DNA of 64,000 nt from Camellia lanceoleosa (Eukaryota > Streptophyta > Magnoliopsida > Ericales > Theaceae): assembly GCA_025200525.1 (NCBI GenBank), contig CM045762.1, positions 85,206,117-85,270,116 on the forward strand. The letters are read 5' to 3'. A program made the translations under genes and the position numbers. The notes under the pieces were generated by a model. That model was not told the origin of the DNA. It was given only the letters and a program-made list of their open reading frames with translations, and did no database searches. Positions 23,554 through 60,915 of this stretch are shown here, in pieces (the stretch's first letter is position 1; each line of letters opens with the position of its first letter).

Positions 23554-26500
23554 TGTAGACACCCCAGTTTTGATCGCTCGTAAGACTTAGGCACTTGGTT
23601 CCGAGCACTCAATGATGAAGATTACATTGAGTCAGTGGTTTGAATTCTCAATAAAGGAATCCGAGTTCGAGCTCTAAACAATTCCAACCTGCTATACCCA
23701 CTGTATTTCTACTCCAGAATTTCAGTATTGCACCTTGTACCAACCTGTATTGAACTTGAAAGTAAGAAATAGTGGAAATACATTGAAGTTCGGCCGGACC
23801 CCAATGACATCCGGCCGGACCTCTTGACTTTTCAGGCAGATTGTACAGCAATCTAGCAGCTGCCCAATTCAGCATATATTTTGAGTAGCAGCTCAAGTCC
23901 TATAAATACGGGGCTCATTCTGCTATAATAGAGGTTGGTTGATTAAGAGAGAAATATCCAAGAGTAGAAATATCAAAGCTACAACTCATCTTTGTTCTTC
24001 CATAAGCTCTCATACCATCCATGCATGCCATACAAGAGCTTGAACTTGGAACTTGATTTGAGAATTGAAAATCATAACTCAAACTTGAGGGCGCTTTGGA
24101 ATCAAGTTTGGTTTACAACAAGAACACCTTCTCTACAAGAGGTAAAGCTTCCTCACTTTCATTTCAATCTTTGTTCATCTTTTTCTTGTGTTTTCATATT
24201 GTTTTAGGACTGTTTTAAGGGCTGAAACTTGTGATTAAAAGCTACCCAAAGATAGAGGGGTTAATCACCCTTGCTTGAACCTTATTCCTAGCTTAAATCC
24301 TTGTATTTCCCACTTGTTTTCTCTAATTTTTATCATCGTTTTAGGGCTGATTTGGGACTATTTTGGGGCTATTTTTCAACATCTAAAATATGTGATTTGA
24401 AGTTATAAAAGTAAGGGGGGTTAGCCACCCTCCCTTACACTTGTTTACTAGCTTTAATCTCTTTATGATTGTACACCTTCTATAGCTTAATTTCAGCACT
24501 ATTTTATGCTATTAAGGGGCTGTTTAATTTATTTCAATAATTTTTCTTTGCATATTATGTTTGTTTTATAATAATCAATTAATGAACTTCACATAATCAT
24601 CTTTGTAACCTCCCCCCATTCTTTGATTATTTTGATTAAAAAGTTGTGAAAAATTAAGGTTGTTATTCTAGTATAAGAAAGAAATTTTTTCCATGCTTAA
24701 TGGTTTAATCTCTTCGAAGGTTCATTACCAAAGGCATAAAACTTTTTCATGCTTAATGGTTTAATCTCTTCGGAGGTTCATTACCAAAGGCGTACATCTT
24801 TCTTATACTAAAGCCAATCTTTTATTTTTTATTTCTTTTTATCACCAGTGTGTTTACTTTTAAGGGACTAATGGACCCTTGGAAATCATCAACGAAAGCG
24901 TCATTATCACAAATTATCAAGTTTGGATTTCAAGTCATTATCACTCACTTTGGGTTTTTCTAAGTCATTATCACTCTTCTAAGTTTGACTAGTCCTTGTT
25001 GCAAATCTTGGGTTTGACTTGAAATCCTTAACTTATAAATAAGTTTGACTCTTCCTTTGTAATTCCCTCGAATAAAATAAGGTTTATTTCCTCGGGTTAA
25101 GTCGACACTTGTTTCCCTTTAATGTGTTTTGGACTTAGTGGATGTAAATATCACTGTGGATTTAATGGATTAAAGAAAAGGAAAGGTAATATAAAAGAGA
25201 CTAATAAAATTGAGTTTAAAATGAATCGACCAACATAAAGAACCAATATGATTGATTGAATTTGGTCGGATGTTATACCAAGTTTATTATGTCAAGGCTT
25301 GTCTTACATCAATTCATAATGTTTTGATGAATCTTGAAACGTTTTTACGGCTAGACGTCATGCTGAAGTCTATTGTGTCAAGGCTTGTCTTACATCAATT
25401 CATGATAATTTGATGAACCTTGAAGCGTCTCTACTTCCCTTCTTGAATTCATTTCATGATAGGAAGGAGGGGCGGTTGTTATACATTATATTTATTGATC
25501 TTTGTCCTATCTTGTCCAAAATCATCTTGCAAATCAACTTGCAACCATAGAGGGTTTGGGAACAGAGTTTGCTCATGTTTTGAGTAATTTCTATGATAGA
25601 GAAGGATAGAAGAGACAAACATGGTTAGAAATACCCTGTCTGCACTGTTTCACCTAAGGTAGAAAAAAATAGATTTCTACAAGAAAACAAGGTATTGGAT
25701 TTATTTGGGGTTCGACTGAGTCACGTTTTGGGTCAGCAAGGCTCCAATAAATTGCAAACAATACACTTTTAGTTGAAAGCAATGATAGGGTGAAACAAAA
25801 CAAATCCTAGCAAGGCAGACAGAGTGATTCTTGCGGAGCATCACACAATCATTGTATATTTGTTGTAATAAATTAAACAGCCCTTTTTAGTTATTATTCA
25901 TTCAAATTTGTAATAATTATTTATTCGGACACTTAGACATTCAAACCCTCATTCGTGAGGACAAATATGTAATAAGTTGTATGTCTTCCAACCTCCATTA
26001 TTTCTACCTTTTATTTATCAGCTTATGATGGTTAAATTAGGGACATCATGTTTAATTTAGCATACTCATGTTTGTATCCATTCGTTTTACATGCATAAAA
26101 GTTTGGCTCATCATATTATTCAAATGTCAAATTCAAACTCTTTACTTGAATATGTGCATTATCACATGCCTTGAATTGACTCGCATGTCATGCTAGTAGC
26201 CGAGCTTATTAATTGCATATCGTATGTGTTGCATTAGCCATATTACATAGTTAAGATCATGCATTTTTCTAACTAGTTTTTCTTTTGGCTTGGAGTACGA
26301 GATAAGTTTTTATGCTTTAGCATATTGCATAAGTGTGATATCATATCAAACATACTACCATAAGGGTAAATGCTTAATTGTTAAACTGCTTGAATGCCTG
26401 TGAATGAAGGCTATTTGCTTAAATTGGAATAATTTGAATAATGTTCATATGCGATCACCTTTTTTTCAAGTGGTACATATTCAAAATATTTTTCTTTCCA

Positions 26501-26975
26501 AACCAAACATGATTTGAATGTATCACTGTTTGCAAAACTAGTCTATACTTGTATGTTAAAATAGAATAAGAACATATGCTATACATAAGAATCGCATCAT
26601 GATCATGATTAGTAGAGGCCGATCTTTGATCGGTTGAGTGGGGTGCTCAATTAATGACCTTCCCCTCTCATACCTAAGTTTCCGAATCAAGACACTTTGG
26701 TGACGACAGACTAATAGCCTTTGGCACGAGTCATAGGTTTCCTAAATTTCTCAAAAATATTTAGGTGGTGACTCTGATATTTGGCAAAGCAGTCCATTTT
26801 TGGCATTTGATTCAAAACATCGATTTTTCAAAAGAAATTGCTGGATTTGAACTCTTTTTGTGTTTCCATTGTTTCACATTGCACTTGTGAAATTAGATTC
26901 AGAACCACACAAGTGGAGTCCGAACTGTATGGGTTATTCATTCTTCCGAAATGGAGCGTGAAAAGTCGAGCTACA
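23554..26975 (+). mobile_element. 3.4-kb solo LTR-like element E nested in Tat element 3
   Basis: It starts TGTAGACACCCC and ends CGAGCTACA, with the 5-bp duplication CCTGC at 23549-23553 and 26976-26980. There is no second copy of its ends inside and no coding sequence, so a solo LTR of a giant LTR element is the simplest reading. A promoter-like CCTATAAATACGGGG lies at 23900-23914. It is related to 45405-49338: their 3' ends share GGCAAAGCAGTCCAT and GGATTTGAACTC/GGATTTGGACTC, and both have GACGACAGACTAATAGCC or a close form. A 90-bp near-tandem duplication with TTTAATCTCTTCG occurs at about 24690-24800. Confidence 0.85.
23791..23821. repeat. CGGCCGGACC motif pair in LTR E
   Basis: Two copies of CGGCCGGACC have cores (CGGCCG) at 23791 and 23812, 21 bp apart, about 100 bp upstream of the TATA-like box. 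This is one of six such clusters in the window. Confidence 0.85.
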
Positions 26976-27400
26976 CCTGCCAACTTCCCTAAGCCTAGAT
27001 CCTTATCTTGGCTTAAGGGACAAGCTAAATGTTGGTCAAACCTGCCAACTTTCTTGAGCCTAGATCCTTATCTCGGCTGAAGAGCAAAAATTTGTTGGTC
27101 AAACCTACTAACTTCCCTAAGCCTAGATCCTTATCTCGGCTTTAGGAACGAGCTAAATGTTGGTCAAACCTGCCAACTTTCTTGAGCCTAGATCCTTATC
27201 TCGGTTGAAAAAAAATAAATAAATAAAATAAAAAATTGTTGGTCAAACCTACCAACTTTCTTAAGCAAGATCCTTATCTCGGCTGAAAAAAAATAAATAA
27301 ATAAAATAAAAAATTGTTGGTCAAACCTGCCAACTTTCTTGAGCCTAGATCCTTACTTCGGCTGAAGAAGAAAACTTTATTTTTGGTTAAACCTGCCAAA
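26976..27400 (-). repeat. ~62-bp tandem repeats, second part
   Basis: The array at 22880-23553 resumes here with about six more copies. Two of them carry an expanded AAATAAATAAATAAAATAAA run (about 27210-27312). Confidence 0.88.
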
Positions 27401-27555: not shown

Positions 27556-28900
27556 TCATGGCCTAGGAACAGCCTTGTTGTCTATATCTTCTAAGTGATA
27601 TGCCCATTTTCCCGCTAAACCAATCACTTTGTATGGTCCTTCCCAGTTAGGTCCTAACTTGCCATCTCCAGGTACTAAAGTCTTGCTCATTACTTTGCGA
27701 AGTACCCAATCTCTAATCTTCAATTGTCTTGGGTCTACTGTTTTGTTGTATTTTCTGGACAACTCTTGTTGATATGAGGCAATGTGTACCAATGCCCTTT
27801 CACTTCTTTTTTCTACGAGGTCGAGTTCTAGAGCTATGGCCTCACCATTCAAGTTTGGATCAAAATTTTTGTTTCCCATTTCCAAGAAGATTACTACCTC
27901 CATGCCATAGGCCAAAGAAAAAGGTGTTTCGCCAGTTGATCGTCGAGGTGTGGTACAGTAAGCCCATAAAACATAGGGAAGTTCTTCTGCCCACTTGCCT
28001 GTTGCTCTTTCCAACCTCTTCTTTAAACCGTCTAAGACTACTTTGTTGGAAGCTTCAACCTGGCCATTAGCTTGGGGGTACGCCGGTGTAGAGTTGTAGA
28101 ATTTTATTTTGTATTCTTCGCAAAAGCCCCTAAAGCATTTGCCATCAAACTGAGTGTCGTTGTCGAATATTAAAGCCTTAGGTATGTCGAACCGAGTTAT
28201 GATGTTCTGCCAGATGAACTTCTTGACATCTTTTTCTTTTATGGATGTGAGTGATTCTGCCTCCACCCATTTTGTGAAATAGTCCGTTGCTACGAGAAAG
28301 AACTTTTTGTTGCCGGGCGCAGTTGGGAGTGGTCCTACTATATCCAGGCCCCACATTACAAAGGGCCACGGGCTGGTCAATGATAGAAGCTCTCTAGCTA
28401 GTTGATGTATTTGGTGTGCGAACTTCTGACATTTCTCACACTTCTTGACATACTTGTTTGAATTTGGTTGTATGTAGGGCCACAAATATCCCTATGAAAT
28501 TGCTCTGCAGGCCAGCGATCTTCCCCCTTGGTGGCTTTCGCAGACGCCTTCATGTATTTTGAACAAAAATGCATTGTCCTTACTGGGATGGACATATTTC
28601 AAGTAAGGTCTTGTGAAGGATTTTTTGTACAATGCTAGTGATGGGGAGAGCCAAAATCGCTGTGATTTTGCTATAATTTTGTTGGCTTCTTTCTTTTTTT
28701 CAGGTAAGCTGCTATCTTTCAAAAATACTATGATAGGGTCCATCCAAGAAGGGCCTAGCTCGGCACAACATGCTTCGGCTGCTTCGACTTCTTCAATACT
28801 TGGTCTGGGTAGGAAGTTAATCAGCAATGGGTGTGGAATAGATGTATTTGCCATTGATGCAAAATCGGCCAGCTCATCTGCTTTACTATTTTCCTTCCGG
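27556..28900 (-). pseudogene. int: Integrase of Tat element 3
   Basis: This is the C-terminal part of pol, in one frame with RT. The zinc-binding HHCC motif appears as HEGVCESH (about 28575-28550) and CEKCQKF (about 28440-28420). The catalytic core has WGLDIVGPLP (Asp, about 28342), LIFDNDTQF (Asp, about 28162) and YPQANGQVEA (Glu, about 28054). The last two lie 35 residues apart between them, a proper D,D35E. A GPY/F-like segment, LGPNWEGPYKVI, follows and the frame ends at 27556-27558. One TAG stop (28492-28494, for CAG) lies between the zinc finger halves. No chromodomain is present, as expected for the Tat lineage. The enzyme would insert element cDNA into the genome. Confidence 0.92.
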
Positions 28901-29270
28901 CCGATTTGCTCTATCCGGACTACTTCAAACTTCATGATCTCCTTTCTGACCAAGTCTTGGTACTTAGCCATCCTATCATCTTTTGCCTCGTAGTCGCCTG
29001 AAATCTAGTTAACTACTAGGTGGGAGTCACTGTACACCATCAGCTCGGTGGCCTTCATGCGAAGCGCCGATTTTAAACCTGCTAGCAATGCCTCATACTC
29101 CGCCTCGTTGTTGGATGTTGGGATGCCAAGGTTGACTGCATGTTCAATTGTTAGGCCATCCAATGAGATGAGGACTATGCCAAGTCCTGCATCGTACCTG
29201 TTGGATGCTCCATCCACAAAGAGTTTCCACATCTCTCTGACAAATAGCTTCCAGCAAGTGGAGGGATTGA
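28495..29270 (-). pseudogene. Second (archaeal-like) RNase H of Tat element 3
   Basis: After the usual RNase H and a ~100-residue linker, the pol frame has [20 protein letters not shown] (from about 29235), [13 protein letters not shown] and YSDSHLVVN, then KENSKADELADFASMA (about 28900). These carry the D-E-D-D metal-binding residues of a plant-type RNase H. A second RNase H of this type is a marker of the Tat/Ogre clade. A TAG stop at 29005-29007 (for CAG) splits the domain. Confidence 0.88.
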
Positions 29271-31690: not shown

Positions 31691-31696
31691 TTTGCC

Positions 31697-33469: not shown

Positions 33470-33488
33470 TCCCACAGACGGTGCCAAT
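33470..33488 (-). other. Primer binding site of Tat element 3
   Basis: On the minus strand ATTGGCACCGTCTGTGGGA directly follows the LTR end (TTGTACA). It is a one-base variant of the TTGGCGCCGTCTGTGGGA type of the other two elements. Confidence 0.8.
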
Positions 33489-34207
33489 TGTACAAGCATA
33501 AAAAATAATCTTCTCGTATAATCCTGTTGATCAAGTTTGCACTCCTCCAAACGTCGTCACTTTGTTACCTGAAAACACAAACGTAAGCTAGCCGGGGGGT
33601 GTGTACCGAAAACCTCTCCGATGCCTAAGTCAGAAAATAGACAATAGACACAAAAGCTCTGTGTATTCTAGAGTAAAAATTGTGATACCCGTACATAGGT
33701 CCTGCATGAGCTTTTCTAGATTCTGCCTGGCACAATCCTAATAGGACTCCAACTCTCCTAAGGAGAGTCTTCTTAGGAATCACACTCCCAAAGATAATGC
33801 CTATCCTGATAATACCCTACTTACTACCAACCAAGTGAGATGGCTTAAACCTCCTTACCTCGATTCTGTAATAGCTCAACCGAGCTAGCATGGTCGTGCC
33901 CCACGCCAGACTTAACCATACTCACACAGCACGGTGCTACTTTAGACAACACACCAAGTCTTTACTACTTAGACGACACCCTATAGAGCTATCATATACC
34001 TCAGTCCTCCTTCCAACGATACCTCGGTCCAAGACAGCCAGACCAGGCCACTGGTAGCTTGCCTCTGACCGAACTGTCGGGATAAAAGACCAAGCTTCAT
34101 TACCTCGGCTCATAGTTCGGCCCAACATCTAGGAGATTGCACCTAGCTCGGTCCATTTCAATAGTTGCACTTTGCTCGGCCCAATGTACACATAAATTAT
34201 CCTCTCA
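33489..34207 (-). mobile_element. 5' LTR of Tat element 3
   Basis: 719 bp, the same length as the 3' LTR, starting TGAGAGGATAATTTATG on the minus strand. The flanking CCAAC (34208-34212) matches 18849-18853. Differences between the two LTRs are frequent and mostly transitions. Confidence 0.93.
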
Positions 34208-40568: not shown

Positions 40569-41586
40569 AGGGGGGAAGACTGTGACACCTGCTCAGACAC
40601 GCTAAATTGGTCCTTAATTTGTTTATGGTTATGTGTTTAGCATGATTTTGTGTGCCATTATGTGATAACATGTGATTTTGAATCCGTATCTGTGAATATC
40701 TGTTGAATAATCCACTTCGGAAATTAAATTGGGGGCCTTATCGGCCACAGAATCCGAAATTGATTGCGCCATTATGATTGGCATAATTTTTAGAGCCTAC
40801 GGTGAAATTTAATTGAAATTGATTCCGGTCAATTTAAACTGATTGAATTGATGAATTAGGAGCCCAAATATTTTATATTAAATATTGTGTTAGTGGGGCT
40901 AATTGTTTAATTGCATTGCACTCTCCTTTAGCTCTCTTAGAACTCAAAATCTGAGTTAGACAAGTGAGAGAGAGGGAGAGGCCGGTTATAGAGAGGGAAG
41001 AAGGAGACTTGGGCAATTTTGGCTCTAGTTTGGGGAAATTGAAGGTTTAACTCAAGAATTGACTAGAGTTTGGGGGATTAAAGCTCCTAGGTAAGTAACC
41101 AACCCCTAACTCATGAGTTTGAATTGTGATTTCATGAATTGAAGATGAATTTATGATCTAGAACATGAAAGGAGTTGGTTTTGATGAATTTGGAGACTAT
41201 GTATGCATGCATGTGGGTTTTGTTTTGAAATTGCATATTTGAGCTTGGATTACATGACTCATGTTGTCATTTTGATTGAAATCCATGTATTTGACCATCT
41301 CTTCATCATATGAGGTGAGAATGAAGGCCATATGTCACATGCATGTATAATCCATGGGAGTAGAAGCTTTGAATGCATGAAATGGTTACATTGGTAATGA
41401 GTTGGTGGAAAATGGGCCATGCATGTAGATAAATTATGAAATTGAGCCTCCTAGTGTTGTAATCTTGCATTGGTATCATGTTAGCATGATTAAATTTGAG
41501 ATTTGGACCATTGCATGTAAGTAGTGTGGCTGGAAAATCGAAATGAAGCTCAAGAACAAAATCTGGGAAACCCAGAATTTTGGTGC

Positions 41587-41805
41587 CCGCTCGAGCGGGG
41601 TAATGGCCGCTCGAGCGGAGAAATCGAACTCCCAGCATATTTCTGCAGACATGATGGCCTTCGGCGAAGTTGGCTTCGGCGGGAGCTATGTGACACGAAG
41701 TCCGCTCGAGCGGAAGAATGCACGCTCGAGCGGGGATGGGAGGCAACCAGTACTTCTGCAGACCTAAGGGTCCGCTCGAGCGGGGAAGTCTACGCTCGAG
41801 CGGGG
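41587..41805. repeat. CCGCTCGAGCGG cluster in LTR A (three pairs, 20-bp spacing)
   Basis: Six copies of a palindrome CCGCTCGAGCGG (some ACGCTCGAGCGG) have CTCGAG cores at 41590, 41610, 41705, 41725, 41775 and 41795. The two members of each pair are exactly 20 bp apart, while the spacer sequence differs. Distances between pairs vary (95 and 50 bp). Confidence 0.95.
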
Positions 41806-42480: not shown

Positions 42481-43011
42481 AGGCCATTTGTTGTATTGTT
42501 CCTATAATTGCTTACGTCACTTGTTTATTTGATATTATTCACTGGGCATTCGCTCACGCTCATTCATGTAATTGTAGGTGAGCCAAGTGAGGTCCAACCC
42601 CAGCCCCAGTGAAGTCAGCCAGGAACAGCAGGAGTTTTGGGAGAGTCAGCCTTGGGTCTCACGTACGAGACCAAACCTTGCCCCTTTTGGTTATTTGTTT
42701 ATATTCTGTTTTGTTGGCAAGGGTCTTGTGTATGTTGTATACAGTTGCTATGGGTTGACTCAGTTTAGATGATCCTGTCTGTAAAGAAGTTTTTGTTACT
42801 GTACTTTGATGTGGGTTATTATCGTATATGCGCATGGGTTGTTTTAAAGTGCATATAAGCACGGCTTTATGGACAAAGTTTTTAATTATTGCTTCCGTTT
42901 GGCCCCTTTACTCTGTCGAGTTATGTTTGATTTGTATGGAGGCCGTAGGTAATCTCAAGATTACTGGCCGGTTACGTCCTTAATCCATGGGGGCGGGTTA
43001 GGGTCGTGACA

Positions 43012-44409
43012 GTACGGGACACAGCTACACGTGCAGAAAATAGGGAAACTTGAAGATGGCATTCTAAAATAAAAGCACGTGCGGGCCGCACGTGCGACAC
43101 ACCTTCCCGTACGTGCGGCTAGGGACTTCCGCACGTGCGGCTTGAGGGGAAACATTCTGTTGACTTTTTATGCTTTTCTCAACCCTCTAAATGTGTTAAA
43201 ATGTCCATTTGACTCTTTTGTAATGTGTATAATTAAACGGAACTTAACGAATCAAATAGCAAGTGAACAAGAAGAAACTAAAGAAGAAGAGAATGCTTAC
43301 AAGTGTGTGCTGTGTGTAGGTCACATACCAGACGAGACTAGCGTGCAACCACATCACTGTAAGTAATAGTAGTATAAAATGATGTTTTGCTTATTGCTAT
43401 AATCATGCTTTTGTTTATGAATAGCATATGTGATGGATTCGACTATGTGAATGGAACTAATTGAGATAATTGCACAATGTCACTACCATGGACTCAAGGT
43501 TGTTGAGAACCTCAGAATAAAGGTGGGCCCAAGGCCGTTATGATATGAATTGTTAATGATTTATGACATACGGCTCGAAGGTCAGGATAGATGGGGACAT
43601 GTCGATGTTCCATCTTCTTTGTAATGATATGGATCACATGTGACCAATGGCGTTAAGGCCAAAGGAGGTGGGGACATGTCGATGTTCCATCCACCTTACA
43701 TTGATTTGGACAACTGTTGATTTGTTTGGCTTAAAGCTATTCCGAACTGTATTAGACCTAAGGCCGTTTTGTAACCTATGTAGGCCTGAGGCCGTTCTGT
43801 GTCGACTTATGGGCCTGAGGCCATTTTGAAGTATGTTTACAACTAAAATCTATACCTAGTTTGTATATAGTCTCTAACTCTTATGCTTATGCAATTATCT
43901 TTTCTGCATTACTATTATTCACTAAGCCTTGCTCACTTTATGTTTATGTATGTATGTGTAGGCCATCAATGAGAAGGCCAACCCTAGGTCAGCTTTAGGA
44001 GCCTTTTTGCTGGACTTGTCTCATAATATACCCGAATGCTCTTTTGTTGTAACACTAGGACCCCTTTTGTTTTTGTTTTGGGAGGTCCCGTATACACATA
44101 TATAATGGCATGTTTTGATGGCTTTGGATGACTTGTCTTAGTTGGTTTTAATGTATAGCTTACGGGTTGCTACCCTATATGTACAAAAGCTCATGTGTGG
44201 ATTCGATGTATATATTTACATATATGATGTATGATGTGTAAAGTGGCATGATCCTGGCATATAGGCACGACTCAATGGTTATTTATTTTGATATTAAATT
44301 TGCTTTCGTTCAGGCCCCACAGGCAATATAGTTATGAATATTTAACTCCGAGGCTTAAGTTTCAGAATGGTCATGCCCAAACTTTGAGGGGCAAGTTGGG
44401 GTTGTGACA
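43012..44409 (+). mobile_element. LTR B: 5'-truncated Tekay-type LTR
   Basis: It begins abruptly after the end of LTR A and ends GGGTTGTGACA, like LTR A. Order of parts is the same as in LTR A: motif cluster (43028-43140), GGCC-AAGGCC motifs (43525-43830), the box TTCACTAAGCCTTGCTCAC followed by TGTAG (43917-43962), then the end. A 22-bp block (GGGGACATGTCGATG...) is repeated at 43591 and 43670. The sequence has diverged strongly from LTR A, so this is a different family or an old copy. Confidence 0.72.
43028..43140. repeat. GCACGTGCGG cluster in LTR B
   Basis: CACGTG or TACGTG cores lie at 43028, 43076, 43089, 43110 and 43132, mostly in CCGCACGTGCGG palindromes. Three successive spacings are 13, 21 and 22 bp. 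The placement is like the CTCGAG cluster of LTR A. Confidence 0.88.
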
Positions 44410-46720: not shown

Positions 46721-46830
46721 ACCATCGGCTGGAGGAAATGCCCACCGGCCATATAGAATTGCCACCGGCTGCTGATGGAGTTATCGGCCATTCACCAATG
46801 GCCGGTCGGCACTGAATGTTGCCGGTCGGC
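46721..46830. repeat. CCGGTCGGC / ACCGGC array in LTR F, ~20-bp period
   Basis: Six copies of a CGGC-centred motif (from ATCGGCT to GCCGGTCGGC) have CGG at 46726, 46746, 46766, 46785, 46807 and 46827. The spacings are 20, 20, 19, 22 and 20 bp. On the coding direction this array is about 1.9 kb downstream of the TATA-like box. Confidence 0.88.
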
Positions 46831-48731
46831 AGAAACTTCCTGCAAAAGACAGTTTTGACAGCAACAGAGGACATGCAGTATATGCCATGGGATTTCAGGC
46901 ACATGTGAGCATGGCCATGTTCCCCGTCATGTATTGAACTCAGGGAAACATGGCCCTCGATCCTCGAGCCATCAATTGTGCATGATAGCCTAAGAGATCA
47001 AGCTTGCCATTTGATGTGAAAATGCATGCAACACACAAATGAGGTCCAAGACCCTATCATGTCGAAGTCAAGGGCCCCGGTGACCGAGAGTTAAGACGTG
47101 TTACATCACTTGTAGTATGAACGCTCCTCAACCCTCACACTTGGTTTGATACCCCAAACCAAGTAATGCAATGCATGTTATGCAAACATGGCTCAAAGAT
47201 ATGACATGAGATTAAGATGCAAGGCATGCCAAATGCCATGCAACTATCATGGCAAGTATGCAATGCTAGGCATGCAAGATGCAAATGCAATGCAAACATG
47301 GACGATTTAAGCAATAGGGTCATCATGTTACAACACCTAATGAAGCAATCATGCAACAAACATGAGACAAGCATGCAATAGGGGACTTAAACCATAAAGG
47401 GGCAGACCTCAATCCACCCCAAAACAGTGGCCAAAAGTGCCCAAAATGGTGGACAAACACTCATGCAAACATGCAAGCCAATGGACCTAAAGCTAAGGCA
47501 CAAAAAGGGGGCACTTTACTTCCACTAACATGGCCACTCATGGCATGAATTAGACAAGCAAAAACAGAATCCTAGCATGCAAAAATGGACTTCAAAACCC
47601 ACTGATGTGGTAGCTTAAATGGCTCCAATGAGATGCATGCACCAAAGCTCATTTCTAGGCATAAAAGGGCACATCCTCAAAGCATGAAAGAGGTCACATA
47701 TGCAAACATACAAACATGATTTATGGACTGAAATACGGTCCTAAATGATGCCAAATCATGATGATTGTCTAAGCTAAGCATGCTAGAGGCCAATATACTC
47801 AAGGCTTACAAGCCAAAACACAAAGAGATGACACCAAACATGGAAAGCATGACTAAAGCACATGGCTAACAGGCCTTAAACATGGTAAAGTAATGCCAAT
47901 ACCTTCATGAAATTAGGCTAACACATGCAAGAATCATGGCCTAAACACAAGATGCATTTCTATGCCAAATAGAGGAATGCAAAGCAAGTATGTTAAGCAT
48001 GCAAAAGGGCACAAATCCGACCAAAAACAGAGATGACATATGACCTAGAGACACCCAAAAACCTCTGAAATAGTGCTAAAATCAATCAAGCATGCATGTT
48101 GCCCTTTAAGCCAAAAGGCAAGGAAATGAGGCAATGAAGGGAGAGGGGTGTCCCTCCCCTATACAAGACTTCAAACCACCTTCCTTACCACTGAAAAATC
48201 ACTGGTTTTCAGTGGTGAGAAGACTAAAATACTCAAGCAAACAAAGCCTCACAAAGGAAGTACCAAAAAGGCCAAATAAGGCCTAAGAGGGTGAGTTTGA
48301 ACTCAAACCACAAAACACCCTCAATGAGAGTTCTTAAGCATGAAAATATAAGATTTTTTTATGTTATGTACAAAGTCTAAATCAGCAAGCAAGACAGGTA
48401 AAAAACTAGTGCAAGTTTAGGGAAACTAAAGCAAAGTGATTATCCTTGAAGAACACCTCAAGAATAGTCAATGCAGCCCTCCTCTTTTGATCAAAATCAG
48501 TCCAAAAGCTCAAGAATCAACCCTCAAAGCCTCTCAATCTCGGAATAAGGTGTAATGGTGTGTGTATAGGTGCAAAAGTAAGGTAAAAATGCACTTTTGG
48601 GCTTCCAAACAGACACTAAGGGAGGAGAGAGAGGGAACTATAGAGAGAGATAATATATCTAGCAGATATATATGTATACAAGCTCTGGTTCTTATGTTTA
48701 TAACTCAAACCCTTAACAATGGAGGAGGATG

Positions 48732-48980: not shown

Positions 48981-49117
48981 AAGTCGGCTGGCAAAAGAGG
49001 TCATCGGCCACAACAAAGTGCCGATCGGCAAAATATAGTGCCGACCGGCCATTGGTTTTAAGAAACCACTACCGGTGGCACCCACAAACGGCCGGTGATG
49101 GGTGGGGGCAGCCGGTG
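48981..49117. repeat. CCGATCGGC / ACCGGTGG array in LTR F, 20-bp period
   Basis: Seven copies have CGG at 48985, 49005, 49026, 49046, 49073, 49093 and 49113. Spacings are 20, 21, 20, 27, 20 and 20 bp. The array is 240-370 bp upstream of the TATA-like box on the minus strand. Confidence 0.9.
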
Positions 49118-49338: not shown

Positions 49339-50474
49339 CCATCGTTAAATGTCACCTAATCACCACCAAAATTATCGATTTCTAATCGGAAGGACCTTGG
49401 TACCTACACCGTGTAGGTTTTCAGTCTTTCACCATGGACTATCTAGCCAAATTATTTCAATCTCATCTATACATCACCTGGATTCACCACCAATGTTCAA
49501 TTAAAACCATAGCGTTTAATGTAGTCAATGCAACACATGCAAGTATTCAATTCTCGTAAAATATGCTCCATGCACCTTTGTTCAATAGTGGATTTTCATT
49601 TCCATGAATTCCATAATTTAATAATACAATGAATATGGGTTTTCATCAACCTATTGTATCAATATCTATAATAATACCATTTTCCACCAATGGCCAATAC
49701 AATTATCTATAATAATGATATAATTTCAATAATAATAAACAATAATTTCCAATTTCAACACAATATCATAATTTCTTTCAACATAACATCACCAATTTTA
49801 ATATAACACTACTAATTTCTCATTTGGTACAATTTCACAAATTAGGGCTTTTTACAAAATTGGGGCTTTCTCACTTTTAAGCACCTTCATGCAATTTTAT
49901 ACAATGAAAATAAGTTTAATAAGAAAATTATAGAAAAATACCCAATCAATTATCAAACCCTAACTCCTTAACATGCCATTTCTCATCTCTCTACAAATAT
50001 CCAAGGTTAATCTAATAAAATAACCATACATCCATCCATAAACTCATATTAAACAAATGAAAAGAGGAGAAACACAAACTTTTGAAAATGCTTGAATCAA
50101 CTATTGGCTTGGATGATCTTGAAGCCCTTGTCAAGATTTATAACCTTAATACTCAAGTCGGAGATCAGTTTTCAATACATGATTTTAATAGAGGTTTAAT
50201 GGTGGAGAGAGAAAGTGTAGAGAGAAGAGAGATATAGAGAGAGAATGAGTGATGTACAAATGTCTAAGGCCCCTACATATAATAGAAGCATAAAAGTAGC
50301 TTTAGGTCTTACAAATCTAATCAAAAGTGTAGCTTTCACGCATTAAAGTCAAACAGACTGCTTAAGGGGACAAAAGTTTGCTTAACTGGGGAATGATTGC
50401 TTGTAGGATCTTTGTTTTCTGAAATAGATTGCTCAAGCGGTAAAAAGTGTACTCAAGTGGTGAATGAGTGCTTG
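49339..50474 (-). mobile_element. LTR D, middle fragment with promoter and motif pairs
   Basis: On the minus strand a TATA-like TCTATTATATG near 50276-50286 is followed by CT-rich leader-like sequence (50160-50260). Upstream of it are two motif pairs (50361/50381 and 50432/50452). The fragment ends at the insertion of the chromovirus derivative at 50475. 49480-50100 is AT-rich and non-coding. Confidence 0.55.
50361..50457. repeat. CTTAAG / CTCAAG motif pairs in LTR D
   Basis: Cores at 50361 and 50381, and at 50432 and 50452, are each 20 bp apart. A third pair, CTTAAG at 60722 and TTCAAG at 60742, again 20 bp apart, lies beyond the nested chromovirus. The nested element therefore split one cluster. 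Confidence 0.9.
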
Positions 50475-53055
50475 TGTAGCACTTGTACCCTTTTAAAACT
50501 TTTGAGAAGTATATTTGAATCCTTTATTTTGTTTTGGGAACCTTTGGTGTTGTTGTATCTTTGTTTTGGATGAGTGAAAATTAATTTAAACCTGTTGGGA
50601 CTGTTCGTTCACGCTTGTTCGCATTGAAAAGTTGTTTGAAAACTTGAAAATCATGTTCTGGGGTCGACACCGAGCTTGGTGGTGGCGACACCTTCTCTTT
50701 TGGGTTGGTCGCAAGGGTTGACACCAGTCTTTGGAAGGGTCGACCCTTGTCCTGATTTTGCTCACTGCTTTCTGGTGTTGACACGTGCCTGTGGAAGGGT
50801 CAACACCTGCTGTGCAGTCAAGCCTAGTGTTCCAGGTTTCTTCTTGGGTGTCGACACCTGCATTGCAAAGGGTCGACACCTACGACTTTTTCCCAGATTT
50901 TTCCACCGGTTTAGGCCTACTTTTTGGGGATATTTTGACTAGATATTTTGGGTTGACTTTGGGGCTTATATCTAATTTTCTCCTAGTACTATATAAAGGC
51001 CCTCACTTGATCATTTCTTTTACTTTTTTCTCTCTTTCTTCCCTCTAAACCGTAAAACACCATCTCCCTCTCTCTCAAAAGCACTTTTCGCTCAAAATCT
51101 TTAGATCTAGTCTCTTGGAAGCATCTTCTTTCCTTGCTCCTTTGAGAAAGATTGTAGATCTCGTCAAGAGCTTCGTTTTGATCCTAGTAGAAGTTGGTTT
51201 CGACAACTTTGGAGTTTTAGCCTTTTGCTCATCTTCTCTTCCAAGCTCGAGGTAGGGACATTCTTGAGTTATATATACAAGTTTTGCTACCTTTATGTTG
51301 GTTTTAAGAGTTTTCATATAGTTCCTTGTTGATTTCAATCTTGTGTTTTGAAAATGTAGAGATGTTTTAAATGTGGGTTGTATCCCAACTCTTTTATAAA
51401 TCCTAGAAGGTTTTTCTTTGAGTTATATATATATATATATATAAAGTTTTTAGTTGATCTTGTAACTCTCCTTGAGAAATTTCAAAAATGGGTTTGGTGG
51501 CTCAAAGGATTGATGGTTTTTGTAAAACAAACTCTACCTTGTGTACATTAGAGATTTTCTTGAAATTTTAGACAACTTGAGTTGAGATTGAAGTGTGTGG
51601 TGAGATTTTATAAAAGAGATGAACAGTGTTAGGGTTTTTGTAAAAATCTAGAAATTGGGGGTTTTTTGAAAACATGAGGAAAACTATGAAATTCTCTTTT
51701 TCTTGCGTTAAACAAGTAAATGAGTGTGGATTTCACAATGTGATATAAAGAAATGATAATTTTCATGATATAAAAGAATGGGGGACTTATTTTTAAACTA
51801 TTGTTGAATATATGGAAATATTTGAGTGGAAGATGATAATTGTTGTGCATTATGGATTGTGAAAATTAATGTTTTAAAAACATTACATGTATTGATGAGA
51901 CTATATTGCTAAGAATTGTGAAAGGTGAAATTGTGGCTAAGTGTAGATAACATGTGGTTATCTTGGGAATGAGTAATGAAAAGAGGTAATGGAAAAATGT
52001 GATTGTTGATGTTATTGTAGAGACTTGGAAAATGAGAAGTATTTATGAAGTTATTATATAATACATGAGTATGCATGATTGAGGAATGGGAAATTGGTAT
52101 GTACCATGGATCGCGGGAATTGCTATGAGTTGAAGGTATATATATTATTTTGTGAAATAACATTGAAGAAAGAAAATGAGAAATGTATTTATTCAATATT
52201 GTTGTCATGTACGTGAATGGAGAAATGTTTTGAGTTGTGGAAAATCATTGCATTGCATATGCATTCAATTATTATTTTTGCATTGTAAATTTTGATTGAA
52301 GATATCTATTTCATGAAAGAAAATAAAGTTGTGATGTGAATTATGGAAATGTGAAAAGTGGTAAATACGGTGGTAAGTCCGATTAGAGGGTGTAGACGAA
52401 TTTTGTTAAGTTGGCCTGAGTGTCCTTGGTGAAAGACCAGAAAGCCGCGCGGATAGGTGTCGAGCCTTCCGGTTAATCCGGTAAAAATGACAGTTTGGTA
52501 GTACTTGCAGAGTCTACTTACAGACACCAGCGTAGGGATTACCGATGTCGTATTTACCGTCCCTGTTGATTAAAATTGGAAGTTTTTGAAATGTGGTGAG
52601 ATTGCAAACTTTTGTTGAAAAATGGATATCTTTGAGAAAAGCATGAAATGAAAATTTCTTTAAAAAAAGCATGGCATAGCATCGTCATTTGCATTTTTAG
52701 TTGAAGTGGCGTAACTGTATAATTGTAAAGAGTATAAAGCTCTTATTTTGTTGTGATATTTTTTTTTTTTTTGTAAAGCCAAGGGCTAATGTGTATGGGT
52801 CCGAGAGACCATGTTGTGTAACCGGGCTATTGCCTTGGAAGATGTAAGCCTTTAAGGGCATTTTATTTGTTTTGAGATTAGATGCTTCACATGTTATAGA
52901 ATTATGTATTCGTTATGTTGTGAATGTGAATCGCAAGTGAAACTTTTGTATTTAATCCATTTATTATATATGTGATGTTGGAGGGATTATTGTCATTGAT
53001 TAATGAAGGATCATTCTTATGGGTAGTTCATGTTGAAATATTTCGAGGCGTTACA
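50475..53055 (+). mobile_element. 5' LTR of element C
   Basis: 2581 bp. The TATA box CTATATAAAGG is at 50990-51000, with CT-rich sequence downstream. The GTCGAC cluster (50663-50877) lies 110-330 bp upstream of it. Compared with the 3' LTR it lacks 98 bp (equivalent to 60241-60338) between 52720 and 52721. The end of the LTR leads directly to the primer site. Confidence 0.93.
50663..50877. repeat. GTCGAC motif cluster in LTR C (four pairs, 21-22 bp)
   Basis: Cores GTCGAC, GGCGAC, GTTGAC or GTCAAC at 50663/50684, 50717/50739, 50777/50799 and 50850/50872 give within-pair spacings of 21, 22, 22 and 22 bp. The variant cores differ from GTCGAC mainly by C-to-T or G-to-A. The same cluster is in the 3' LTR at about 58173-58387. 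The cluster is in U3, upstream of the TATA box. Confidence 0.93.
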
Positions 53056-53583
53056 ACTTGGTATCAAAGCCACCGGGTTTGAATACTTGGGGCTCACGGG
53101 AAGTGGTTGTTATACCACAATGGGTTCATTTTGCATGATTAGGAAATGTTTTGTCTATGTGATTATGTGATAACATACTTATGTGACTATGTGGGTATGG
53201 GATTAGACTTTTGGGATGTTATTTACGCCTATTAGATTCTTTGAGGTCTTATTAGAAGGCTACCTGATCAATACTTCTTATACTAAGAATTCTTGGTTTC
53301 TCGTGGGACGAATCGCATCACTAAAGGATAATTCGTATGTATTTATATGACTATGTGCTTATGTGGAGTGAATTGGATTGCTTATGTGCTAGAATATATA
53401 TAATTGTATTAGTTTTACGTGTGAGGCAAGTTGTGAGTACATTTGGAATTATGTACCAATTTATCTATCATGTTTCTTAATTAGGATGTTAGGAAGGGTT
53501 CAAAGTCGTGGTGGTGAGAGTGTGTGCCTTAGGGAGGCTGTTGCATCGTGCACTTAGTTGATTTTGGTTTTGAATTTTATAGG

Positions 53584-54654
53584 ATGTCTACACGAGGAAA
53601 TAGAGGACGGATGGGCAATAGGAGTGTTGGTAGGGGCATGGCGGTTCCCCTAGCACCTGCCGTTACAGCATCGGCTATCGGCGAGGAAGTTGCACGCGAG
53701 GTTGTGAGAGCGGTGCAAGATACTCTAGCATGCAATGAGGGGAACAACGGGCGTACCCTCAAGCTTACTAAGGAGTTTCTTCGCCCCAATCCACCAGAGT
53801 TTTTGAGAGAGGCAAGACCGCTGGAAACGGAGAGTTGGTTGGAATGGATTACCAAGACTCTTGACATGCTCAGAGTCGAGGACGAGGGGTTGAGGGTTTC
53901 TTTGGCGACCTTCCAATTACAGGGGAATGCGAGTTATTGGTGGAAGTGTGTGAAGGGTACTGTAGATGCCACGTGGGTTGCGTTTACCAAGGCCTTCTTG
54001 GCCAAGTATTTCCCTTCTTTTGCTTGGGAAAGGTTAGGAAAGAAGTTTGTTGAGTTGCGTCAGGATGCTACTCCTTTGGCTCAATTTGAGATGAGGTTCA
54101 CTAGTTTTTCGAAATTTGCTCCAGAATTGATGTCAACAGAGGAGCTCCGTTGTTATGAGTTTAAAAGGTGGTTGCATGACGATATCTGGGAGAAGGTGGT
54201 TAGATCTAAGTGGAAGAATTATTATGATCTAGTTGAGGCGGTGGCCCATGCAGAGGCCGTGGTTAGCAGTGTGGGTCGAGCTAGGAAAGAGGCCACTTCG
54301 GTAACTCCTATAGTTCATAAGCACTCTAGACTTAGCAAGAGATAGAGGCGAGCGCATGCTCACTCGCAAACTCGGTCTTTGCTTTCATCAGGGGTTTTGA
54401 GCTGGTCTGTTGGGGGATCTAGTGAGGTTCAGGCTCCAAATCGGATTCAAAGTTGGAAGGCCGTTGTTTGTTTTAATTGTGGTCAGCAAGGCCATGCTAG
54501 ACGTTTTTGCCCTTTACGTGAAGATCTTTCTGGTGTTTTAGAATCTAGTCAGACTTTGTCCCATCAGTCCAGTCGAGGATATCATTGGTATCAGACCCGA
54601 AGAGGCCAGGCTTCAGAAGCTTCACGAGGGTTGACCTTTAAACCAGCACGGTAG
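53584..54654 (+). pseudogene. gag: Gag of element C (Tekay-type), one in-frame stop
   Basis: The start chosen is the second Met at 53584, giving MSTRGNRGRMGNRSVGRG, a usual Tekay Gag start; an upstream in-frame Met at 53548 is also possible. The Gag core is LTKEFLRPNPPEFLREA, ESWLEWITKTLDMLRVED, GNASYWWKCVKGTVDATWVA and ELRQDATPLAQFEMRFTSFS (about 53770-54120). A TAG at 54343-54345 interrupts after 265 codons. The same frame resumes into a CCHC zinc knuckle, CFNCGQQGHARRFC (about 54470-54515), and ends at 54652-54654. Without the stop it would be about 356 aa, and no frameshift is seen. It is much better kept than pol and may be under use by relatives; that is inference. No protease follows. 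Confidence 0.9.
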
Positions 54655-57047: not shown

Positions 57048-57668
57048 TCGTTTGAGGCCTTATATGGCTGACCTTGTAGGTCACCAGTTTGTTGGGCTGA
57101 GGTGGACGATGCACCTTTGTTGGGCCCGAAAATCGTGAGGGAGACAACTGAGAAAGTTGCTCTCATCAGAAAGAGGTTAGCCATGGCCCAAAGTCGACAG
57201 AAGTGTTATGCCGATAAGAGTAGACGACCTTTATCTATCGAAGTAAGTGATCACGTGTCCCTTAAGATCTCACTTAGGCGAGGTTTGATGAGGTTCGGTA
57301 AGAGTGGTAAGTTATCTCCGAGGTTCATTGGGCCTTTCGAGATGTTGGAGACGATTGGGGAACTAGCATACTGGTTAGCTTTACCGCCATAATTTTCGAG
57401 AATTCACAATGTGTTCCATGTGTCAATGGTTAGGAAGTACGAGCCTGACCTTTCTCATGTGTTGGATTGGGTTGATTTGGAGGTAGATGAGGATGCCTCC
57501 TACGAAGAGCGACCGGTTCAAATTTTAGATACCCGAGAACAAGTGTTGCGGGGCAAGACCATATTGTTAGGGAAGGTGTTGTGGAGACACCATGGGATTA
57601 ATGAAGCGACTTGGGAATGGGAAGCGGAGGTCCGTTCCAAGTATCCAGAGTTATTTGAGTTGGTCTAG
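57048..57668 (+). pseudogene. int: Integrase C-terminus with chromodomain, element C
   Basis: The frame begins SFEALYG, then (after TGA at 57069-57071) PCRSPVCWAEVDDAPLLGPK, RLAMAQSRQKCYADKSRRPL, MRFGKSGKLSPRFIGPFEML (GPY/F), a TAA at 57390-57392, and NVFHVSMVRKYEPDLSHVLD. It ends in a chromodomain: VQILDTREQVLRGKTILLGK, VLWRHHGINEATWEWEAEVR, and TAG at 57666-57668. Apart from the two stops the frame is intact over 620 bp. In chromoviruses this domain directs insertion to heterochromatin. The catalytic core is absent. Confidence 0.92.
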
Positions 57669-57984: not shown

Positions 57985-60669
57985 TGTAGCACTTGTACCC
58001 TTTTAAAACTTTTGAGAAGCGTATTTGAATCCTTTATTTTGTTTTGGAAACCTTTGGTGTTGTTGTATCTTGGTTTTGGATGAGTGAAAATTAATTTAAA
58101 CTTGTTGGGATTGTTCGTTCACGCTTGTTCGCGTTGAAAAGTTGTTTGAAAACTTGAAAATCATGTTCTGGGTTCAACACTAGGCTTGGTGGTGTCGATA
58201 CCTTCTCTTTTGGGTTGGCCGCAAGGGTCGACACCAGTTTTTGGAAGGGTCGACCCTTGTCCTGATTTTGCTTACTGCTTTCTGGTGTTGACACGTGCCT
58301 GTGGAAGGGTCAACACCTGCTGTGCAGTCAAGCCTAGTGTTCCAGGTTTCTTCTTGGGTGTCGACACCTGCATTGCAAAGGGTCGACACCTACGACTTTT
58401 TCCCAGATTTTTCCACCGGTTTAGGCCTACTTTTTGGGGATATTTTGACTAGATATTTTGGGTTGACTTTGGGGCTTATATCTAATTTTCTCCTAGTACT
58501 ATATAAAGGCCCTCACTTGATCATTTCTTTTACTTTTTTCTCTCTTTCTTCCCTCTAAACCGTAAAACACCATCTCCCTCTCTCTCAAAAGCACTTTTTA
58601 CTCAAAATCTTTAGATCTACTCTCTTGGAAGCATCTTCTTTCCTTGCTCCTTTGAGAAAGATTGTAGATCTCGTCAAGAGCTTCGTTTTGATCCTAGTAG
58701 AAGTTGGTTTCGACAACTTTGGAGTTTTAGCCTTTTGCTCATCTTCTCTTCCAAGCTCGAGGTAGGGACATTCTTGAGTTATATATACAAGTTTTGCTAC
58801 CTTTATGTTGGTTTTAAGAGTTTTCATATAGTTCCTTGTTGATTTCAATCTTGTGTTTTGAAAATGTAGAGATGTTTCAAATGTGGGTTGTATCCCAACT
58901 CTTTTATAAATCCTAGAAGGTTTTCCTTTGAGTTATATATATATATATATATTTATGAAGTTTTTAGTTGATCTTGTAACTCTCCTTTAGAAATTTCGAA
59001 AATGGGTTTGGTGGCTCAAAGGATTGATGGTTTTTGTAAAACAAACTCTACCTTGTGTACATTTAGAGATTTTCTTGAAATTTTAGACAACTTGAGTTGA
59101 GATTGAAGTGTGTGGTGAGATTTTATAAAAGAGATGAACAATGTTAGGGTTTTTGTAAAAATCTAGAAATTGGGGGTTTTTTGGAAAACATGAGGAAAAC
59201 TATGAAATTCTCTTTTTCTTGCGTTAAACAAGTAAATGAGTGTGGATTTCATAATGTGATATAAAGAAATGATAATTTTCATGATATAAAAGAATGGATG
59301 ACTTATTTTTAAACTATTGTTGAATATATGGAAATATTTGAGTGGAAGATGAAAATTGTTGTGCATTATGAATTTTGAAAATTAATGTTTTAAAAACATT
59401 ACATGTTGTATTGATGAGACTATATTGCTAAGAATTGTGAAATGTGAAATTGTGGCTAAGTGTAGATAACATGTGGTTATCTTGGGAATGAGTAATGAAA
59501 AGAGGTAATGGAAAAATGTGATTGTTGATGTTATTGTAGAGACTTGGAAAATGAGAAGTATTTATGAAGTTATTATATAATACATGAGTATGCATGATTG
59601 AGGAATGGGAAATTGGTATGTACCATGGATTGCGGGAATTGCTATGAGTTGAAGGTATATATATTATTTTGTTAAATAACATTGAAGAAAGAAAATGAGA
59701 AATATATTTATTCAATATTGTTGTCATGTACGTGAATGGAGAAATGTTTTGAGTTGTGGAAAATCATTGCATTGCATATGCATTCAATTATTATTTTTGC
59801 ATTGTAAATTTTGATTGAAGATATCTATTTCATAAAAGAAAATAAAGTTGTGATGTGAATTATGGAAATGTGAAAAGTGGTAAATACGGTGGTAAGTCCG
59901 GTTAGGGGGTGTAGATGAATTTTGTTAAGTTGGCCTGAGTGTCCATGGTGAAAGACCAAAAAGCCGCGCGGATAGGTGTCGAGCCTTCCGGTTAATCCCG
60001 GTAAAAATGACAGTTTGGTAATACTCGCAGAGTCTACTTACAGACACCAGCGTAGGGATTACCAATGTCGTATTTACCGCCCCTGTTGATTAAAATTGGA
60101 AGTTTTTGAAATGTGGTGAGATTGCAAGCTTTTGTTGAAAAATGGAAATCTTTGAGAAAAGCATGAAATTAAATTTTTTTTAAAAAGAGCATGGCATAGC
60201 ATCGTCATTTTCATTTTTAGTTGAAGTGGCATAACTGTATATACTTTGTTAGAATTCTTTACTGGGCTTTATGCTCACCCCTATGGGACTTTGGTGCAGG
60301 TAAAGACATGGTGATCCCGCCAAGTTGAGGGGGCGGATAATTGTAAAGAGTATAAAGCTCTTATTTTGTTGTGATATTTTTTTTTTGTAAAGCCAAGGGC
60401 TAATGTGTATGGGTCCGAGAGACCATGTTGTGTAACCGGGCTATTGCCTTGGAAAATGTAAGCCCTTAAGGGCATTTTATTTGTTTTGAGATTAGATGCT
60501 TCACATGTTATAAAATTATGTATTCGTTGTGTTGTGAATGTGAATCGCAAGTGAAACTTTCGTATTTAATCCATTTATTATATATGTGATGTTGGAGGGA
60601 TTATTGTCATTGATTAATGAAGGATCATTCATATGGGTAGTTCATGTTGAAATATTTCGGGGCGTTACA
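57985..60669 (+). mobile_element. 3' LTR of element C
   Basis: 2685 bp. It is close to the 5' LTR with scattered single changes, plus the 98-bp segment 60241-60338 that the 5' LTR lacks. That segment has TTTACTGGGCTTTATGCTCA and TTTGGTGCAG|GTAAAG, the counterpart of boxes at 42540 and 43917 in LTRs A and B. TATA box at 58500-58510. Confidence 0.93.
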
Positions 60670-60915
60670 GCTTCCAGGATCTAAATTTTTGAAAATCAAA
60701 GCTATCTAGGTCTATGGACCTCTTAAGCGGTCAAAAGTGTGTTCAAGTGAACTATGCTGACATCTTAGGTGCCCAAACTTCGAATAAACATAACTCTCTT
60801 GTCTGAACTCCGTTTTGGGTTTAAATTGAAGTCTCACAAATAAGCTTTCTAATAGTTCTAGCTTCACATTAAAATTCAAAGTGTGAAGGGGGGAAAAAAA
60901 AAAAAAAAGAAGTAA
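60670..60915 (-). mobile_element. LTR D, 5'-side fragment (right of element C)
   Basis: The sequence continues LTR D after the nested element, with the third motif pair (60722/60742). It ends around the A run at 60894-60909; the true LTR end was not identified. Confidence 0.5.

What the first reader, a model, noticed from the sequence alone, without database searches (positions are those of the whole stretch)
23791..60747. One architecture, different palindromes: 20-22 bp phased motif clusters in six LTRs
Six LTRs in this window carry a cluster of one short motif built on a palindromic hexamer: CGGCCG (E, 23791), CTCGAG (A, 41590), CACGTG (B, 43028), CGATCGG/CCGGTCGG (F, 46724 and 48985), CTTAAG (D, 50361) and GTCGAC (C, 50663). 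The motif differs in every LTR but the spacing does not: pairs or arrays sit 20-22 bp apart, with unrelated spacers. Twenty to twenty-one bp is two helical turns, so the copies face one side of DNA. The closest known parallel is the phased TNPA-binding repeats of CACTA ends. I infer a fast-changing DNA (or RNA) recognition code, perhaps binding sites of a diverging host or element protein. I know of no name for it.
Basis: seen in the sequence. Interest (0 to 1): 0.88.

Follow-up and report, generated by a model that had tools for sequence, protein, structure and literature searches.

The report
Helix-phased palindrome arrays in LTRs
Several groups of retrotransposon sequences in one large genome carry rows of short mirror-symmetric DNA words, spaced about two turns of the double helix apart, with different words in different groups, which looks like landing strips for paired DNA-binding proteins whose recognition word has changed during evolution.

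Summary
The named clusters exist. In the host genome (3.0 Gb) five of the words recur as close pairs: GCTCGAGC 182,786, GCACGTGC 5,527, CCGGCCGG 4,029, GCCGATCGGC 818, TGTCGACA 230. Listed centre-to-centre distances peak at 20, 20-22, 20-21, 20 and 21-22 bp. Beyond the pairs, arrays keep phase at 10.2-10.5 bp, the pitch of B-DNA, but for the A word phase is not significant when each gap size counts once. Corrections: D's CTTAAG is most likely the CpG-decayed A word; E and F are related; spacers are not wholly unrelated; an unplanned sixth word, GGCCGGCC, shows no clear 20-22 peak. C's leader is homologous to leaders in two loci that carry the A word, so the word changed on a related backbone. 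Best reading: homodimer binding sites on one DNA face, probably cis-regulatory. No protein was identified; A and B arrays have no TATA-like box close by. Closest known: Sirevirus RM boxes (Ty1/copia); here at least C is Ty3/gypsy, chromovirus-like. New variant of a known kind.

The parts
23789..23820 (+). E array: two TCCGGCCGGA-type sites 21 bp apart, 81 bp upstream of CCTATAAATAC; relatives L003-L008 show a third site by eye
41586..41805 (.). A array: three pairs of CGCTCGAGCG, each pair exactly 20 bp centre to centre; pairs 95 and 50 bp apart
43028..43140 (.). B array: CACGTG and four GCACGTGC-type sites; gaps among the four 13, 21, 22 bp
46724..46831 (-). F1 array: GCCGGTCGGC-type sites, clearest pair 20 bp apart; no TATA-like box within 350 bp downstream on the minus strand
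48983..49100 (-). F2 array: GCCGATCGGC / GCCGACCGGC pair 20 bp apart plus weaker sites; TATATA 242 bp downstream on the minus strand
50361..50474 (-). D array: CTTAAG/CTCAAG sites, read here as CpG-decayed CCGCTCGAGCGG; one pair 20 bp apart; TATATG 80 bp downstream
60719..60750 (.). continuation of the D array beyond the inserted C element: CTTAAGCGG and TTCAAGTG sites, 20 bp apart
50661..50883 (+). C array in the 5' LTR: eight GTCGAC-core sites, gaps 21,33,22,38,22,51,22; TATATAAAGG 110 bp downstream
58192..58393 (+). C array in the 3' LTR: seven called sites, gaps 33,22,38,22,51,22
50475..53055 (+). 5' LTR of element C (TGTAGC...GTTACA), inserted within the D sequence
   Evidence: 97% identical to the 3' LTR; tRNA-Met-like PBS at 53059
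57985..60669 (+). 3' LTR of element C
53533..54345 (+). gag of element C (Retrotrans_gag 3e-14, Ty3_capsid 2.6e-07)
57072..57668 (+). integrase C-terminal SH3_Tf2-1 (7e-14), then a chromodomain match below cut-off (E 0.054): chromovirus-like Ty3/gypsy

Best explanation
The clusters are arrays of binding sites for sequence-specific, homodimeric DNA-binding protein(s) acting on the LTR. Each 10-12 bp palindrome is one dimer site. Two sites two helical turns apart form the basic cooperative unit, and units are strung along the LTR in helical register so that the bound proteins face one side. In C, D, E and F2 the array lies 80-242 bp upstream of a TATA-like box, so the likeliest role is a proximal enhancer or anti-silencing platform in U3. 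Lineages have replaced the word as a set while keeping the geometry. Shown: words, spacing, phase, core conservation in C, one word change on a related backbone. Inferred: a dimeric protein, its cooperativity, any regulatory effect, and whether the protein is of host or element origin.
For: Spacing peaks at 20-22 bp for five words genome-wide. The array periodogram over 14 arrays and 100 sites peaks at 10.4 bp (51.0 against null mean 30.4, reached in 0 of 4000). Twenty-six A arrays from the first 2.8 Mb of C1 peak at 10.2 bp (69.7 against 47.1, sd 4.0, 0 of 3000). C-family neighbour gaps are mainly 21-22, 33, 42, 50-54 and 64, with 38 and 80 off phase. Between the two C subgroups (4 of the 13 comparisons run) cores are 0.86-0.94 identical, spacers 0.65-0.71, downstream leader 0.87-0.90, although each core holds a CpG and non-core CpGs (3-12 per comparison) survive at 0.25-0.50. 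TATA-like box 110 (C), 80 (D), 81 (E), 242 bp (F2) downstream. Word change on a homologous leader: C against L021 score 130 (maximum of 20 shuffles 59), against L015 121.5 (maximum 33.5).
Against: No protein was found or tested. In eight stretches holding A- or B-type arrays (A, B, L011 twice, L014, L028 both sides scanned; L015, L021 one side) there is no TATA-like box within 170 bp, and for L011, L014 and L028 none within 350 bp either way. Off-phase gaps exist: 24, 25, 34, 35, 38, 56-59. With each gap size counted once, A phase is not significant (p=0.10); a first, cruder phase measure on 156 A distances above 43 bp gave only a broad maximum (0.30 at 10.0, 0.29 at 10.4, 0.10 at 10.8). GGCCGGCC does not show the 20-22 peak. 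The eight array stretches folded as RNA are more stable than most shuffles (z -1.95 to -5.0), as a structural role would also predict. Flank symmetry covaries weakly within sites (p=0.012 and 0.0055), which independent half-sites would not predict. Within C subgroups cores are not always better kept than spacers (L029/L034: 0.83 against 0.91).
Confidence: 0.58

Rival explanations
1. The palindromes work as nucleic-acid structure: palindrome-N10-palindrome makes a 10-12 bp stem with a roughly 10-nt loop in U3 RNA (or a DNA cruciform), feeding hairpin-derived small RNAs or protecting the transcript, as proposed for maize Sireviruses.
For: RNA folding z-scores of eight stretches: -3.6 and -4.9 (A), -5.0 (B), -4.2 (E), -2.8 (F1), -1.95 (F2), -2.05 and -2.6 (C); D was not folded. 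Spacer near 10 whether the palindrome is 10 bp (distance 20: A, F) or 12 bp (distance 22: C). Weak symmetric covariation of flanks within sites. Maize precedent in passages of PMC10760457.
Against: A hairpin needs complementary arms, not arms that are each palindromes; loops of 9 or 11 nt should serve as well, yet A shows 0 of 100 at 19 or 21 bp. Helical phasing across larger gaps is not predicted. Many C sites are chimeric (AGGGTCGACACC), breaking symmetry.
Confidence: 0.17
2. No selection on spacing: arrays grow by tandem duplication of short units (about 51 bp = 20 + 31 for A; 20-22 bp for B, E and F), and the phase is a by-product of the unit length while spacers diverge.
For: Many A gaps are sums of 20 and 31 (51, 71-73); some 31-bp spacers look alike across arrays by eye; A and F spacers are not independent; A phase not significant when each gap size counts once.
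Against: Four to five words would each have to hit a unit near a multiple of the helical pitch. The A pair gap stays at 20 although spacers are only 0.45 alike and larger gaps vary widely. C cores stay conserved between subgroups despite CpG decay.
Confidence: 0.17
3. The arrays position nucleosomes: GC-rich blocks at 10.4-bp multiples fix the rotational setting of DNA on the histone core.
For: Period 10.2-10.5 bp over some 100-300 bp.
Against: Does not explain conservation of a precise word within a family or the tight pair spacing.
Confidence: 0.08

Closest known systems
Sirevirus repeated motif (RM) boxes (Bousios et al. 2010, PMC2829016; abstract and sections 9, 10, 11, 19 read, plus passages)
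   Same: Clusters of a palindromic motif, a different word in each element, inside LTRs, upstream of a TATA box, most with CpG; proposed as regulatory
   Different: Ty1/copia, and stated there to be absent from classic copia elements; CGG-CCG core signature (all but Tnd-1), which A, B and C lack; no spacing or helical phasing in the passages searched. Here at least C is Ty3/gypsy, chromovirus-like
[quoted passage not shown] 2016; not held; seen only through passages of PMC10760457 and PMC5311732)
   Same: Palindrome arrays in the LTR regulatory region, predicted secondary structure, high sequence variability
   Different: Discussed mainly as small-RNA hotspots; helical phase not mentioned in the passages seen
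VANDAL / VANC anti-silencing targets in Arabidopsis (PMC5735166 passages; PMC10398659 abstract)
   Same: Family-specific short motifs accumulated in non-coding element DNA by tandem repeat formation, changing together within a family
   Different: DNA transposons with an element-encoded VANC; motif YAGTATTAY arrayed in one orientation; 'palindrom', 'periodic' and 'spacing' do not occur in that paper's main text
Cooperative tetramer sites such as STAT pairs on tandem GAS sites or lambda repressor on adjacent operators (recalled, no call)
   Same: Two palindromic dimer sites about two helical turns apart, protein contacts on one face
   Different: Single host or phage regulators with one code; not transposon-family-specific arrays
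CACTA TNPA subterminal repeats
   Same: Repeated short motif at element ends bound by an element protein
   Different: DNA transposon; no CACTA sequence was compared here

Membership tests
Sirevirus RM boxes | Ty1/copia Sirevirus lineage | tested here: not met
   Element C has Ty3-type gag, integrase SH3_Tf2-1 and a sub-threshold chromodomain; lineage of A, B, D, E, F not tested by coding domains
Sirevirus RM boxes | palindromic motif clustered in the LTR, word differs between elements | tested here: met
   genome counts; LTR status firm for C only
Sirevirus RM boxes | CGG-CCG core signature | tested here: not met
   Present in E (CGGCCG); A and B have CCG-CGG, F2 has CCGATCGG, C has GGTGTCGACACC
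Sirevirus RM boxes | at least eight copies per element (stated in PMC2829016 section 9) | tested here: inconclusive
   Called sites per array: C 8, A 6, B 4 plus one hexamer, E 2
Sirevirus RM boxes | cluster shortly upstream of a conserved TATA box | tested here: inconclusive
   TATA-like box 80-110 bp downstream in C, D, E, 242 bp in F2; not close in A, B, F1, L011, L014, L015, L021, L028
Sirevirus RM boxes | RM cluster defines a CpG island | not tested
   no CpG-island caller run
VANC target arrays | motif bound by an element-encoded VANC protein | not testable with these tools
   no binding data; no VANC-like gene was searched for
VANC target arrays | family-specific motif multiplied within tandem repeats | tested here: inconclusive
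   Arrays and shared gap units seen, but one word occurs on more than one backbone
Ty3/gypsy chromovirus (element C) | gag, integrase with chromodomain, tRNA-Met PBS | tested here: inconclusive
   gag and integrase SH3 met, PBS-like sequence at 53059, chromodomain below cut-off (E 0.054); no reverse transcriptase piece of 70 aa or more was identified among those scanned
CACTA TNPA-type subterminal repeats | repeats lie in the ends of a CACTA DNA transposon | tested here: not met
   C is an LTR element with gag and integrase; the other loci were not tested for CACTA features

The most novel reading that the evidence does not exclude
A geometry-fixed, word-variable recognition system: retrotransposon lineages share an ancestral scaffold in which dimer sites must sit on one helical face in two-turn pairs, while the 10-12 bp word is replaced wholesale when a diverging dimeric DNA-binding protein, of element or host origin, changes specificity. 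This would give each group of LTRs its own address, analogous to VANC targets but for LTR retrotransposons.
Probability: 0.27. Interest if true: 0.85.

Novelty: new variant of a known kind. Interest (0 to 1): 0.63.

Why it matters
If the geometry is selected, an unknown dimeric DNA-binding factor contacts a very large number of LTR sites in one genome (182,786 close pairs of the A word), and the geometry tells how to find it: DNA bait of two palindromes 20 bp apart. It links the Sirevirus RM boxes, unexplained in the 2010 paper read here, with Ty3/gypsy elements through a physical rule (helical phase) that separates protein binding from hairpin models. Word changes on a related leader would allow a test of whether LTR recognition evolves like VANC targets.

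Tried and rejected
Tested and set aside. (1) Chance: dinucleotide shuffles. (2) Tandem satellites as the source of the peak: pairs with flanks more than 60% alike removed, peak at 20 stays (13 pairs against 1 at 19 and 1 at 21 in 200 kb of random sequence; 11 of the 13 are A or EF words). (3) A distinct motif in D: rejected. (4) Symmetric covariation as proof of hairpins: only weak. (5) TATA rule for all arrays: fails for A and B types. (6) The tool's reversed-word control: useful for four words (3,144 against 182,786; 9 against 5,527; 32 against 230; 0 against 818) but not for CCGGCCGG, whose reverse GGCCGGCC is more frequent (28,005) and is itself an array word; used as an unplanned out-of-sample test it gave 11 of 50 at 20-22 bp, or 8 of 39 after merging overlapping registers, with further modes at 25-29 and 37-40. 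(7) Element-encoded DNA-binding protein in C: six pieces of C's interior gave gag, zinc knuckle, integrase SH3 and weak chromodomain; the others nothing convincing.

Rows dropped before counts: one search used 98 of the 100 rows (two rows near C1:368 kb left out as another repeat) and only arrays with three or more sites. One search used 14 hand-chosen arrays (A 7, B 1, C 6; no E or F array), leaving out two close sites of L011b, one of L028, the first two of L019, and the TTGAC-like site before the C TATA box; related arrays are among the 14. Searches use the first 50 distinct places of each list, from the first contigs (C1; C1 to C3 for TGTCGACA). One search removed near-identical sites and still held scattered non-array sites. 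One search compares 13 hand-chosen pairs. One search allows 2 mismatches in 10.
Full report
WHAT IS THERE. The window lies in G000:C5:85206117-85270116 of a 3.0-Gb genome in 790 contigs. That the host is a flowering plant is inferred from the elements; that its size and large contigs recall Camellia is a guess from memory; no call identifies it. A: three pairs of CGCTCGAGCG at 41588/41608, 41703/41723, 41773/41793. B: GCACGTGC-type sites at 43074, 43087, 43108, 43130 and CACGTG at 43028. C: GTCGAC-core sites at 50661 to 50870 with gaps 21, 33, 22, 38, 22, 51, 22, and again in the 3' LTR. E: TTCGGCCGGA and TCCGGCCGGA. F: GCCGGTCGGC and GCCGATCGGC types in two clusters.

ELEMENT CONTEXT. C is an element with two LTRs (50475-53055 and 57985-60669, 97% identical), ends TGTAGC...GTTACA, a tRNA-Met-like PBS, Ty3-type gag, zinc knuckle, integrase SH3 and a sub-threshold chromodomain: a decayed, chromovirus-like Ty3/gypsy element. 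It is inserted in D, whose array continues at about 60721. E and F share the 3' part of their LTRs (two matches of 78-80%; 68% over 875 bp) and both begin TGTAGACACCCC; their Tat-like character is recalled. For A and B only GGTCGTGACA-type 3' ends were found; in the A-type locus L028 such an end lies beside a PBS, about 1.1 kb from the array.

IS IT CHANCE? Near-palindromic 10-mer pairs at 19-23 bp: 11 in the window, mean 0.1 in 30 shuffles; in 200 kb of randomly chosen sequence (L009-L028) 31 against 0.7 over 12 shuffles. After removal of pairs with similar flanks, 20 bp stands out in the random sequence: 13 pairs, against 1 at 19 and 1 at 21. Arrays of three or more sites (2 mismatches in 10 allowed) of the four words occur in 7 of 20 random loci: A-type in L011 twice, L014, L015, L021, L028; EF-type in L010; C-type in L019 (its B-word rows in L011, L014, L028 are the A arrays again).

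GENOME-WIDE. Close pairs (centres 12-42 bp apart) in the genome: GCTCGAGC 182,786 (reversed-word control 3,144), GCACGTGC 5,527 (9), TGTCGACA 230 (32), GCCGATCGGC 818 (0), CCGGCCGG 4,029 (28,005). First listed places: A 58 of 100 at 20, none at 19 or 21, 26 at 30-32; B 39 of 50 at 20-22 and 7 at 40-42; C 42 of 50 at 21-22; F 39 of 50 at 20-21 and 11 at 40-41; CCGGCCGG 34 of 50 at 20-22 and 12 at 41-42. Listed places are the first in contig order, not a random sample. The control GGCCGGCC turned out to be another dense array word; 11 of its first 50 places are at 20-22, with 7 at 27 and 5 at 25. The rule is therefore common but not universal.

PHASE. With pair gaps (up to 23 bp) fixed and every larger gap jittered by up to 5 bp, the summed phase statistic of 14 arrays (100 sites) is 51.0 at 10.4 bp against a null mean of 30.4 (0 of 4000; A alone p=0.003, C alone 0 of 2000). 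In 26 A arrays from the first 2.8 Mb of C1 it is 69.7 at 10.2 bp against 47.1, sd 4.0 (0 of 3000; 25 distinct gap lists: 66.8 against 45.4, 0 of 2000). Arrays are related by descent, so these are not independent draws. Counting each gap size once leaves A at p=0.10, C at 0 of 4000, A and C together p=0.0003. A first measure over 156 distances had only a broad maximum at 10.0-10.4. Off-phase gaps (24-25, 34-35, 38, 56-59) are real.

SELECTION. Between the two C subgroups (4 comparisons) cores are 0.86-0.94 identical, spacers 0.65-0.71, and the leader 0.87-0.90. Spacers thus change faster than the leader while cores resist CpG decay (non-core CpGs, 3-12 per comparison, retained 0.25-0.50). Within a subgroup the contrast is weaker or reversed (L029/L034: core 0.83, spacer 0.91).

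WORD CHANGE. C's leader from about 51007, some 15 bp past the TATA box and 127 bp past the last site, is homologous to sequence in L021 and L015 (scores 130 and 121.5; maxima of 20 shuffles 59 and 33.5), where GCTCGAGC-type arrays lie just upstream, ending about 35 and 60 bp before the homology begins (first seen). Of the 14 loci fetched with C's leader, two being C's own LTRs, 13 carry GTCGAC arrays; in L033 the array is cut off by other sequence. These were the 14 best of 40 scored among 3472 candidates. D's CTTAAG/CTCAAG sites are what CpG decay makes of CCGCTCGAGCGG (14 of 21 changes), and L015 shows the same single-step decayed forms beside intact ones. A and B words differ at 2 of 12 positions (CCGCTCGAGCGG, CCGCACGTGCGG).

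MECHANISM. A palindromic word with conserved core suggests a homodimer site. Two sites two turns apart, and larger gaps near whole turns, suggest proteins touching on one face. Position 80-242 bp upstream of a TATA-like box in C, D, E and F2 suggests a U3 regulatory array. None of this was tested by binding or expression. The A and B arrays lack a nearby TATA-like box, so for the commonest word the promoter reading is open. RNA folding is strong for A, B and E, but the hairpin model explains neither palindromic arms nor phase.

KNOWN WORK. PMC2829016 (abstract, sections 9, 10, 11, 19 read) describes palindromic repeated motifs, different in each element, upstream of TATA in Sirevirus LTRs; the words spaced, 'bp apart' and helix do not occur in its text, and spacing and helical occur only in reference titles. 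[quoted passage not shown] PMC5735166 passages describe VANC target motifs. Searches on palindromes in LTRs and on VANC, Tnt1 enhancers and extra ORFs listed no account of helix-phased palindromes in LTRs; I saw listings and the passages named, and the library lacks most subscription papers, including Bousios 2016.

Noticed in passing
genome-wide; L020 near 963-1034: GGCCGGCC (TGGCCGGCCA) forms another dense array family, 28,005 close pairs, with mixed spacings 16-42 bp
   Followed up: partly
42136-42485: Twelve-copy 29-bp tandem repeat downstream of the A array
   Followed up: no
2637-3426: Array of 58-bp repeats, with 74-bp repeats at 3325-3592
   Followed up: no
23031-23663 and 26970-27218: 128-bp repeat array just before and into the start of the E LTR, with a further copy some 3.5 kb on
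   Followed up: no
18849-19572 and 33484-34207: LTR-like pair 89% identical enclosing E and minus-strand RNase H and integrase ORFs at 27556-30135
   Followed up: partly
L036-L041: C-family sites come in several full palindromes sharing GTCGAC (GGTGTCGACACC, AGGGTCGACCCT, AGAGGGTCGACCCTCT) and chimeras of the two half-sites
   Followed up: partly
46724-46831: F has a second array about 2.2 kb downstream of the first in the same LTR-like stretch; no such array was seen in E 25300-26000
   Followed up: no
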